A stretch of 8,002 nt of DNA from Myxococcota bacterium (lineage in GTDB: Bacteria; Myxococcota_C; UBA6777), in contig JAKLKB010000206.1 in assembly GCA_023150835.1 (NCBI GenBank), positions 1 to 8,002 on the forward strand, in the 5' to 3' direction. The position numbers were made by a program, and so were the translations under genes. Positions 5,792-8,002 of this stretch are shown piece by piece. The stretch's first letter is position 1, and the number at the start of each line of letters is the position of its first letter. The notes beneath the pieces were generated by a model, which had not been told where the DNA came from, did not search any database, and was given only the letters and a program-made list of their open reading frames with translations.

Positions 5792-6035
5792 GGAGTATCG
5801 GGGCAGATCGGTGTGAAGCGAAAGGCGGAGTATCGGGGCAGATCGGTGTGAAGCGAAAGGCGGAGTATCGGGGCAGATCGGTGTGAAGTGGAGGGCGGAG
5901 TATCGGGGCAGATCGGTGTAAAGTGGAGGGCGGAGTATCGGGGCAGATCGGTGTGAAGTGGAGGGCGGAGTATCGGGGCAGATCGGTGTGATGCGAAAGG
6001 CGGAGTATCGGGGCAGATCGGTGTGAAGTGGAGGG
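5792..6035. repeat. Seven-copy 35-bp tandem direct repeat
   Basis: Units start at 5792, 5827, 5862, 5897, 5932, 5967 and 6002. The last unit is one base short. The first 24 bases (beginning GGAGTATCGGGGCAGATCGG) are identical in all copies except one G-to-A change in copy 4. The last 11 bases come in two versions: CGAAAGGC endings in copies 1, 2 and 6, and TGGAGGGC endings in copies 3, 4, 5 and 7. Copy 6 also has an A-to-T change (GATG). Each unit contains two ATCGG motifs ten bases apart. There are no unique spacers, so this is not a CRISPR array. The 35-bp period is not a multiple of three, which argues against a coding repeat. The array lies downstream of the MopE-like gene and 270 bases upstream of the lipoprotein start. 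Confidence 0.96.
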
Positions 6036-6075: not shown

Positions 6076-6933
6076 TCAGGGGCAGGTGATCCCGTCGTCG
6101 ACGAGGCCGTTGCAGTCGTTGTCTTTTTTGTCGCAAGTCTCGGTCGCGGGGATGACTTGGCCGAGGCAGATCGGTTTGTCGTCTTTGCACGAAGTCAGTC
6201 CAGCGCGGCACTCGCCCCGTCCAAGGGTTCCCGAAGCGCCTTCGTAGCAAGGATTGGGCGTGATGTTGTCGACAAGGCCGTCGCAGTTGGTGTCTTTGCC
6301 GTTGCAAAATTCGACGGCGTTGGGATTGCGTGCGGGGTCGTTGTCGTCGCAATCGCGGTCGTTGGTAAAGCCGTCTTTGTCGGCATCTTGGAGGGTGCGG
6401 CAGGTACCGTTTTGGCAAAATTGGCCTTTGGTGCAATCGGGGTTGCAGCGTTTTTGGCAGACGCCGTCAACGCAAACTTCGCCGTTGGCGCATTCAGGAG
6501 CGCAGATGCGTTTGCACAAGCCGTTGTCGCAGATATAGCCGAGTTGCGGGCAAGGCGGATTGCATTCGACGCGAAGAACACAGCTTCCACGGAAGCAAGT
6601 GTATCCTTGGGGACAGGCCGACTTACAACCTTCGACGGAGACGCAACGACCGAGCTTTTCATCACAAAAGAACCCGGCCTCGCAAGGTGTAGCGCAAGCG
6701 ATGGTGTTGCTGTCTGGATAACGATCTACGCACTTACCGTCGAGGCAACGTTGATCGGCGGGGCAATCGGGGTTGCAGATGACTGCGGTTAACTCACAGC
6801 CCTTGGAGGTCAAGGTGTAGCCGGGGCCGCAATTTTGGACGGGAGGATCGCTGATGATGGCGCAGTTGAGGAGCCAAAGGCCCATCGTAAACAAAGAGAC
6901 GCGAAGAGCAATACTGCGAAACGCAAGCTTCAT
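6076..6933 (-). CDS. Cysteine-rich MopE-like lipoprotein with putative metal-binding repeats
   Basis: A 285-residue exported protein. Residues 1-23 form a signal peptide (MKLAFRSIALRVSLF, then MGLWLLN), with Cys24 a probable lipidation site; Asn at -1 is atypical. Six modules of four cysteines each, pattern C-x3-C-x5/6-C-x4/6-C, run from Cys53 to Cys178. A MopE-type motif follows at about 184-222: DADKDGFTNDRDCDDNDP, then AVEFCNGKDTNCDGLVD. A second, shorter copy lies at 267-280 (CDKKDNDCNGLVDD). In the MopE family this acidic Asp/Cys motif is annotated as metal (copper or calcium) binding; which metal applies here is not evident. The start at 6933 is chosen for its signal peptide and for AGGA nine bases upstream (6943-6946), over a longer frame from 6975. 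It is likely a cell-surface protein. The other cysteine-rich gene lies downstream on the same strand, separated by the 35-bp array. Confidence 0.9.
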   Translation of the reverse strand: MKLAFRSIALRVSLFTMGLWLLNCAIISDPPVQNCGPGYTLTSKGCELTAVICNPDCPADQRCLDGKCVDRYPDSNTIACATPCEAGFFCDEKLGRCVSVEGCKSACPQGYTCFRGSCVLRVECNPPCPQLGYICDNGLCKRICAPECANGEVCVDGVCQKRCNPDCTKGQFCQNGTCRTLQDADKDGFTNDRDCDDNDPARNPNAVEFCNGKDTNCDGLVDNITPNPCYEGASGTLGRGECRAGLTSCKDDKPICLGQVIPATETCDKKDNDCNGLVDDGITCP

Positions 6934-6986
6934 GATGTGGATTCCTACATCTTTTTTGCGCAAGGTGCGCAACATCCAAAAGGAGA

Positions 6987-7015: not shown

Positions 7016-7151
7016 AACAAAGTTAGCAAAACGAAGGTCTATTCAGCGAGATGATTTTATCGAAGGAGAAGACATTTCTTCTGAACGCACCCAGAGGGAT
7101 GGATTGCTTTTGCAGAACCCAAACGATTTGTCAAGTCTTTTTGGCTGCTCG

Positions 7152-7784
7152 TCATCGACTCTTCGGCGTGGAAACCCCCTTATGGGCGAGGGGGGAGGAA
7201 ACGCCGTCATGTCTTCGTGTGTAAGCGTATCCATCGGTGTGTTGAAGGATACGACAATGTTTGTAAGAAATGCCTTGTGTGGTACCATTTCGGGTTTTGA
7301 TGTTGAAGCTGCCGGAACTTCGCACCGCCACTCTTCCCACATAACACCCTGCTTTCTTTCCCTTGACGATGACAGCTTTCACCATGTCTCCTGTTTGAAA
7401 GCCATGCACCTTCTTTTGTCTTGTTTTCGGGCCTGTTCGGGGGAAGACGACCCTTGGGAGTCTCGCGCTTCGCAACCCGAACAGATCCATTCTGCACTTC
7501 TGCCGACTTCCCCGTCCCATCGCCTTGATCTCCGGCACTTCTTGCTCTGCCTCCACGAGCACACGTTCTCCCGACACGCCCACACACACCGCATCGAGCC
7601 AGTGTGTTTTCGCATACCCTTGTCGGCTACCGTTGTACTTCGTCTGCCCACCGCTGCCGACTTCCAACGGTACACCCAACCCACACAACCGCTCTCGCGA
7701 TGCCAGTTGGCGAGCGCGAGCAGGATGACAAGGCATCAGGGGTTGATGGTTGAAGTCCAAGACGAGGACTCTGTTTTGTGCCAT
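7152..7784 (-). CDS. iscB: Internally deleted IscB (OMEGA RNA-guided nuclease remnant)
   Basis: A 210-residue open frame that joins the two ends of an IscB protein. Residues 1-28 are the PLMP domain (VLVLDFNHQPLMPCHPARAR). From about residue 32 the chain resumes in the RuvC-III region (GVPLEVGSGGQTKYN, then KTHWLDAVCVG with His61 and Asp64). It continues through the C-terminal region IKAMGRGSRQKCR (87-98), GFQTGDMVKAV (128-138), GRVAVRSSGSFNI (150-162) and QGISYKHCRILQHTDGY (170-186). Full-length IscB is usually about 400-500 residues. Missing are RuvC-I with its catalytic Asp, the arginine-rich bridge helix, RuvC-II with its Glu, and the whole HNH domain, so nuclease activity is not expected. 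Residues 104-113 look like an extra insertion between LFG and FPRT. The last 15 or so codons come from a dispersed repeat. The omega RNA is directly upstream. It could be a decayed pseudogene or a small RNA-binding protein; no frameshift is present. Confidence 0.85.
   Translation of the reverse strand: MAQNRVLVLDFNHQPLMPCHPARARQLASRERLCGLGVPLEVGSGGQTKYNGSRQGYAKTHWLDAVCVGVSGERVLVEAEQEVPEIKAMGRGSRQKCRMDLFGLRSARLPRVVFPRTGPKTRQKKVHGFQTGDMVKAVIVKGKKAGCYVGRVAVRSSGSFNIKTRNGTTQGISYKHCRILQHTDGYAYTRRHDGVSSPLAHKGVSTPKSR
7165..7199 (-). repeat. Short palindromic dispersed repeat, copy B
   Basis: On the minus strand this reads TCCTCCCCCCTC, a six-base loop, AAGGGGG and TTTCCACGCC, nearly the same as copy A at 93-126. 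The stem is CCCCCT (7175-7180) with AGGGGG (7189-7194). It forms the last codons before the iscB stop (SSPLAHKGVSTP), which have no counterpart in usual IscB C-termini as I know them. The natural iscB end was therefore probably replaced by insertion of, or recombination at, the repeat. Confidence 0.55.
7433..7484. repeat. Nine-bp perfect inverted repeat inside the iscB remnant
   Basis: CTGTTCGGG (7433-7441) and CCCGAACAG (7476-7484) are perfect inverted arms around 34 bases. The enclosed stretch encodes residues 104-113 (LRSARLPRVV), which interrupt the usual CR-D-(Y/F)GFPRT motif of IscB proteins between G103 and F114. The frame is kept. It may be a tiny palindromic insertion or a hairpin-mediated duplication. 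Confidence 0.5.
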
Positions 7785-7789
7785 GAAGA

Positions 7790-7957
7790 CGTTACCTTTC
7801 CCCGTGTTGACGGGGTGTTCTCGAAACTTGCGTTTCGGTCAAGTTCTTAAGGCCCGGTTGGGCGAGAGGTTTTGAAGACACGAAGCAGCCTTACCCAAGG
7901 ACTGTCCGCGTGTCGCGCAGAGGCATCGGACTGGAGAAGCATCCGACTGTGCCTCTC
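7790..7957 (-). ncRNA. Omega RNA (HEARO-type) scaffold upstream of iscB
   Basis: Read on the minus strand, five hairpins run without interruption up to the iscB start. (1) AGAGGCA/TGCCTCT plus TCGGA/TCCGA with a CAG bulge (7956-7919). (2) GACACG/CGTGTC enclosing CAG-CCTT/AAGG-CTG with a one-base bulge (7914-7877). (3) GCCC-AACC-GGGC (7863-7852). (4) CGAAAC with GTTTCG closed by a GCAA tetraloop of GNRA type (7837-7822), alternatively AACTTG/CAAGTT (7845-7825). (5) CCCCGT-CAAC-ACGGGG (7815-7800). Position, strand, length (about 170 bases) and dense pairing match omega/HEARO RNAs, which carry the guide at the 5' end and bind IscB. The exact ends are not determined. The iscB ribosome-binding site GAAAGG (7800-7795) touches the 3' arm of the last hairpin, ten bases from the ATG. 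Confidence 0.65.
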
Positions 7958-8002
7958 TATTCTCTCCCAACGTTTCCTCCACCAAAGTTTCCCTCGGCTT
8001 CT

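What the first reader, a model, noticed from the sequence alone, without database searches (positions are those of the whole stretch)
7152..7784. A 210-residue IscB that has lost its whole nuclease core but keeps an open frame
Sequence shows the PLMP N-terminus joined within a few residues (about 27-32, near 7690-7710) to the RuvC-III strand, followed by the complete C-terminal region. RuvC-I, bridge helix, RuvC-II and HNH are gone. Known IscB families include HNH-less IsrB, and TnpB has nuclease-dead regulator relatives, but I know of no form reduced to these parts. No stop or frameshift has accumulated and the guide RNA remains folded. This is either a very recent deletion or a retained mini-protein that binds omega RNA without cutting.
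Basis: partly seen in the sequence, partly recalled or inferred. Interest (0 to 1): 0.85.

Follow-up and report, generated by a model that had tools for sequence, protein, structure and literature searches.

The report
Internally deleted, non-autonomous IscB transposon copy
This short gene is what remains of an RNA-guided DNA-cutting gene (IscB) after an in-frame deletion removed its cutting core; intact copies exist in the same genome, and the shortened copies look like ordinary decaying or hitch-hiking transposon copies rather than a new protein.

Summary
The 210-codon minus-strand ORF at 7152-7784 encodes IscB residues 1-26 (PLMP) fused in frame to the segment starting 32 residues before the RuvC-III KTHWLDA motif, plus the C-terminal region. 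RuvC-I, bridge helix, RuvC-II and HNH are gone. A HEARO/omega RNA lies upstream, cut by the contig end.

It is an internally deleted copy of an IS200/605-like ISC element. The same genome carries two full-length relatives; the deletion is exactly 756 nt with an ACTG microhomology. The identical junction occurs at three places in this genome and nowhere in the four related genomes held. The sister species has the empty site, so the insertion is probably recent. The sister also carries a different in-frame IscB deletion, and other copies here are startless or truncated.

Changes private to the two complete shortened copies are 11 replacement to 3 silent, as expected without selection (omega 0.2 gives P = 0.0014; omega 0.5 is not excluded). 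Two of the window's changes hit columns otherwise invariant across genera. The open frame is expected by chance. A retained mini-protein is not supported, though not excluded. Most likely it is a non-autonomous deletion derivative, recently transposed: ordinary biology.

The parts
7152..8002 (-). Part of the ISC element present in the window, from its right end (7152) to the contig end; the left end (about 60 bp more) lies on contig C129
   Evidence: Copies C135, C68 and C225 stop matching the window at 7152. The C129 flank matches the empty site in the sister genome
7152..7784 (-). Shortened IscB ORF, 210 codons
7707..7784 (-). Codons 1-26: start of the PLMP domain, including the PLMP motif
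   Evidence: RRXRR PF14239 positions 1-26; IscB structure paper PMC9640706 for the domain layout
7704..7707 (-). Deletion junction: ACTG microhomology; 756 nt (252 codons) missing relative to full-length copies
   Evidence: same junction at C135 and C225
7590..7610 (-). RuvC-III motif KTHWLDA, the only part of the RuvC active site kept
   Evidence: NF040563 277-314
7236..7421 (-). TAM-interacting (TI) beta-barrel domain, about residues 122-183
   Evidence: Only confidently predicted part of the model; best Foldseek hits include HfmIscB and IsrB, weak
7838..8002 (-). HEARO / omega RNA, 3' part (5' part cut by the contig end)
   Evidence: RF02033, 29.6 bits, E 5e-4. The same RNA is complete in same-junction copy C135, 61.1 bits. 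Fold z-score -2.6
7175..7195 (-). Right-end hairpin (CCCCC...GGGGG) close to the transposon end, inside the last codons of the ORF
   Evidence: Read from sequence; similar hairpin in most copies aligned

Best explanation
This is a non-autonomous, internally deleted copy of an IS200/605-like ISC element. A full-length parent encoding omega RNA plus IscB lost 756 nt between two ACTG repeats (shown by comparison with intact copies). The deletion kept both transposon ends and the omega RNA, so the short form could still be mobilised in trans by a transposase supplied elsewhere (inferred). It reached at least three places in this genome and recombined with full-length copies (shown: C135 is a mosaic). 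The open frame persists because the deletion happened to be a multiple of three and too few mutations have followed (inferred from counts). The protein, if made, cannot cut DNA, since the RuvC-I aspartate, the RuvC-II glutamate and the whole HNH domain are absent. It is most likely without function.
For: Full-length copies C172 (441 aa) and C226 (458 aa) are in the same genome. The identical junction is at C171, C135 and C225 and absent from four related genomes. Flanks differ between copies and both ends are defined. The empty site is in the sister genome: left flank C129 and the window's right flank are contiguous at G001 C67. The family is a mixture of full-length, internally deleted, startless (C68) and 5'-truncated (C225) copies, with assembly breaks at its ends. 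Private changes in C171 and C135 are 11 N: 3 S; neutral expectation 0.74 N; omega 0.2 rejected at P 0.0014. The full-length pair C172/C226 has dN/dS 0.22 and N:S 81:91; Fisher P 0.022 against the short copies. L84P and R52G fall at otherwise invariant columns. P of no stop after 8 random substitutions is 0.71.
Against: Both complete copies with this junction keep an open frame, and a sister-species copy has a different in-frame deletion that keeps the same parts (164 aa); if each deletion had a 1/3 chance of being in frame, both would be with chance about 1/9. Only 14 private changes were counted, so omega near 0.5 is not excluded (P 0.10). Some private changes may belong to unsampled full-length branches. 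No clear Y1 transposase was found in the genome, so mobilisation in trans is inferred.
Confidence: 0.86

Rival explanations
1. Retained mini-protein: the PLMP start, RuvC-III, WED and TI parts bind omega RNA or TAM DNA without cutting, acting as a dominant-negative regulator of full-length IscB or of transposition, in the manner of the nuclease-dead TnpB relatives (TldR).
For: Open frame in two complete copies and a different in-frame deletion of the same region in a sister species. The TI domain is still predicted to fold. Omega RNA kept. In OgeuIscB the nexus pseudoknot is contacted partly by WED, and the PLMP motif contacts the RNA (PMC9640706).
Against: Private changes at the neutral ratio, including at invariant columns. 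No bridge helix and about half of PLMP lost. Startless and truncated sibling copies are also kept. TldRs are described as having lost the nuclease by mutation of RuvC without apparent loss of guide RNA and DNA binding (PMC13418256), unlike this large deletion.
Confidence: 0.06
2. Assembly artefact: the junction was created by mis-joining reads across repeat copies.
For: The window contig ends inside the element, at a repeat shared with C129 and C179. In the sister genome the shortened copy G001 C14 shares its right flank, but not its left flank, with C172.
Against: The same exact junction is on three contigs, and C135 carries the complete element with both flanks. The two parental sequences share only 4 bases at the junction, too short for an assembler overlap.
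Confidence: 0.03
3. Omega RNA reservoir: the shortened copies are kept because their omega RNAs guide full-length IscB, supplied in trans, to the insertion sites; the shortened ORF itself is irrelevant.
For: Omega RNA kept in full in C135 and aligned over its length in the other copies. Full-length IscB in the same genome. From established IscB biology, the guide is taken from the flank of the left end, so each new copy brings a new guide.
Against: HEARO scores of the shortened copies (61.1 and 71.5 bits) are lower than for C226 (96.7) and G001 C139 (84.9), though all are recognisable. Expression cannot be tested here. Omega RNA may be kept simply because it overlaps the left end.
Confidence: 0.05

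Closest known systems
Full-length IscB of ISC (IS200/605-group) elements, NF040563
   Same: Same N-terminus, RuvC-III, C-terminal region and upstream HEARO/omega RNA; intact relatives in the same genome
   Different: 252 codons removed: rest of PLMP, RuvC-I, bridge helix, RuvC-II, HNH
IsrB (HNH-less IscB relative)
   Same: Lacks HNH
   Different: IsrB keeps a complete RuvC and bridge helix; here RuvC-I, RuvC-II and bridge helix are also gone
TldR (nuclease-dead TnpB-like repressors)
   Same: Nuclease lost in a transposon-derived RNA-guided protein
   Different: TldRs derive from TnpB, keep RNA and DNA binding, and many are tied to new neighbour genes (PMC13418256); none of that is shown here
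Non-autonomous, internally deleted IS derivatives (MITE-like)
   Same: Both ends kept, coding core deleted at short direct repeats, several copies, full-length relatives in the same genome
   Different: Reading frame happens to stay open

Membership tests
RNA-guided nuclease IscB (NF040563) | Whole-protein score above the curated cut-off (175 bits) | tested here: not met
   45.1 bits; parent C172 scores 433
RNA-guided nuclease IscB (NF040563) | Complete RuvC (I, II, III), bridge helix and HNH | tested here: not met
   Only RuvC-III present
IsrB | Complete RuvC and bridge helix without HNH | tested here: not met
   RuvC-I, RuvC-II and bridge helix absent
ISC element (IS200/605-like), deletion derivative | HEARO/omega RNA upstream of the ORF, beginning at the left end | tested here: met
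   RF02033 in C135 starts at the left end, L048 2434; 3' part in the window
ISC element (IS200/605-like), deletion derivative | Defined ends with subterminal hairpins, different flanks per copy, no long target-site duplication | tested here: met
   empty site CCATCCTG|TGACGAAG in the sister genome
ISC element (IS200/605-like), deletion derivative | Full-length parent with intact coding region in the genome | tested here: met
   C172 and C226
ISC element (IS200/605-like), deletion derivative | Y1 (HUH) transposase able to mobilise it | tested here: inconclusive
   Only two marginal PF01797 matches in a 93% complete genome
TldR-like nuclease-dead regulator | Purifying selection on the inactive protein | tested here: not met
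   11 N: 3 S private changes, omega 0.2 rejected P 0.0014; omega 0.5 not excluded
TldR-like nuclease-dead regulator | Retained guide RNA and DNA binding | not testable with these tools
   Needs biochemistry; structure prediction was inconclusive

The most novel reading that the evidence does not exclude
IscB can be cut down repeatedly to PLMP start + RuvC-III + WED/TI as a small, non-cutting omega-RNA- or TAM-binding protein that regulates full-length IscB or transposition. Two different in-frame deletions in sister species would then be convergent.
Probability: 0.06. Interest if true: 0.75.

Novelty: new member of a known kind. Interest (0 to 1): 0.2.

Why it matters
It shows how internal deletions at short repeats produce open-frame, nuclease-less IscB relics that look like a new mini-protein class, and how a naive pairwise dN/dS (0.26 here) misleads when copies recombine with functional relatives. 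If a mini-IscB were real, it would be the IscB counterpart of TldR; the present data give no support for that.

Tried and rejected
Pairwise dN/dS between the two complete shortened copies is 0.26, which looks like purifying selection. It was rejected as evidence: from nt 250 on, C135 is 98-99% identical to full-length C226, so the differences were largely inherited from full-length lineages through recombination; only private changes are informative. Structure prediction of the shortened protein gave only the TI barrel, but the full-length control with the same 8-sequence alignment also failed in the RuvC region, so it says nothing about foldability. Wider searches (genome contigs, plasmids, phages, viral contigs) gave no other copy recognised as having this junction; the plasmid hits were not inspected one by one. 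The phylum holds only five genomes, so wider phylogenetic tests were not possible. Literature searches found no paper on IscB reduced in this way; the founding ISC and OMEGA papers are not held, so earlier description of non-autonomous ISC derivatives could not be checked. Short IscB frames in G004 (C46, C41, C111) lie next to contig ends, so they are not deletions that could be shown.

Full report
The reading of the sequence is right. On the minus strand, 7784 to 7152 is an open frame of 210 codons. Its first residues match the start of the RRXRR/PLMP profile. The IscB model NF040563 matches in two stretches with E 6.8e-12, the better one being residues 32-69 on the model's last 38 positions, which hold RuvC-III. 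Against the full-length IscB copies of the same genome, residues 27-278 are missing: exactly 756 nt, with ACTG present at both breakpoints. What is missing contains the rest of the PLMP domain, RuvC-I (VDPGSR at 60), the bridge helix (from 101), RuvC-II (158), and HNH (201-244). What is kept is the first 26 residues, the linker before RuvC-III, KTHWLDA, and the WED and TI regions (domain layout from PMC9640706).

The window is the whole of contig C171 (8002 bp), and the element runs off its end. The right end is at 7152: copies on C135, C68 and C225 lose similarity to the window there, each with its own flank. The left end is a hairpin starting GTCAACGACCC, seen on C135, C179, C129, C172 and C226. 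In the sister-species genome G001 (the Myxococcota MAG KLAP109, by matching contig sizes), the flank of contig C129 and the right flank of the window are contiguous at C67, reading CCATCCTG|TGACGAAG with no element between them. So C129 carries the left end of this element, the sister has the empty site, and the insertion postdates the split or was lost cleanly in the sister.

A HEARO/omega RNA lies upstream of the ORF. In the window it is cut by the contig end (29.6 bits, E 5e-4). In C135, which carries the complete element with the same deletion, it scores 61 bits from the exact left end. The guide segment is upstream of the left end and so not in the window.

The genome has two full-length IscBs of the same subfamily, C172 and C226, plus one of another subfamily at C193. 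The junction sequence occurs three times, on C171, C135 and C225, with no match in four related genomes at up to 3 mismatches. C225 lacks everything upstream of the last few bases before the junction, including the start codon. C68 has a different deletion that removes the start codon, and C151 is a small fragment. Many more contigs start or end in the element's ends in both genomes, as expected for a multi-copy element that breaks assemblies. In the sister species, G001 C14 has another in-frame deletion, giving 164 aa with the N-terminus joined almost directly to RuvC-III. Its right flank is the same as that of C172 here but its left flank is not, so recombination between copies or a mis-join affects that locus.

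Is the shortened protein kept by selection? The simple pairwise dN/dS of C171 and C135 is 0.26, but C135 from nt 250 onward is 98-99% identical to full-length C226, while C171 resembles C68 and C225. The differences therefore come mostly from full-length lineages. Changes private to C171 (7 N, 1 S) and C135 (4 N, 2 S) total 11 N to 3 S. Random mutation would give about 74% N. An omega of 0.2, close to the value between the full-length copies C172 and C226 (0.22), gives P 0.0014; an omega of 0.5 gives P 0.10 and is not excluded. The comparison with the full-length pair (81 N to 91 S) gives Fisher P 0.022. Two of the window's private changes, R52G and L84P, hit residues identical in all the other sequences compared that have the position, including a different genus. 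About 4% of random substitutions in this frame make a stop, so no stop after 8 changes has a probability of 0.71. The open frame is therefore no evidence of function. Caveats: counts are small, some of the private changes are adjacent and may be single events, and unsampled copies could make some private changes older.

Structure prediction did not decide the matter. The shortened protein's model is confident only for the TI barrel, about residues 122-183, whose best Foldseek hits include HfmIscB and IsrB at weak E-values. The full-length control with the same shallow alignment was as poor in the RuvC region.

The best explanation is a non-autonomous deletion derivative of an ISC element. Shown: parents, junction, ends, three copies, empty site, mosaicism, neutral-looking change. 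Inferred: the deletion arose by slippage or end-joining at ACTG, and the copies were moved by a transposase in trans. A transposase could not be pinned down: only two marginal Y1 matches were found in a 93% complete assembly. [quoted passage not shown] The rival of a mini-IscB regulator is kept at 0.06, mainly because of the second in-frame deletion in the sister species.

Noticed in passing
window 5792-6028: Tandem array of a 35-bp unit, 6.8 copies, 95% matches, between two lipoprotein-like genes
   Followed up: no
window 7104-7850 (+): A 248-codon open frame antisense to the shortened IscB; the full-length C172 and C226 loci have long antisense frames too, probably a by-product of codon use
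   Followed up: no
L052 2200-2370 (G000 C225): The right end of the element is duplicated in tandem (about 90 bp twice) after the shortened copy
   Followed up: partly
L048 2434-3344 (G000 C135): Mosaic copy: junction and 5' half related to the window and C225, 3' half 98-99% identical to full-length C226, pointing to recombination between copies
   Followed up: yes
L081 / L050 (G001 C14 and G000 C172): Same right flank for more than 1 kb but different left flanks around an IscB element, shortened in one species and full-length in the other
   Followed up: partly
window 6076-6975 (-): Gene with MopE-type metal-binding motifs (PF11617) next to the element
   Followed up: no
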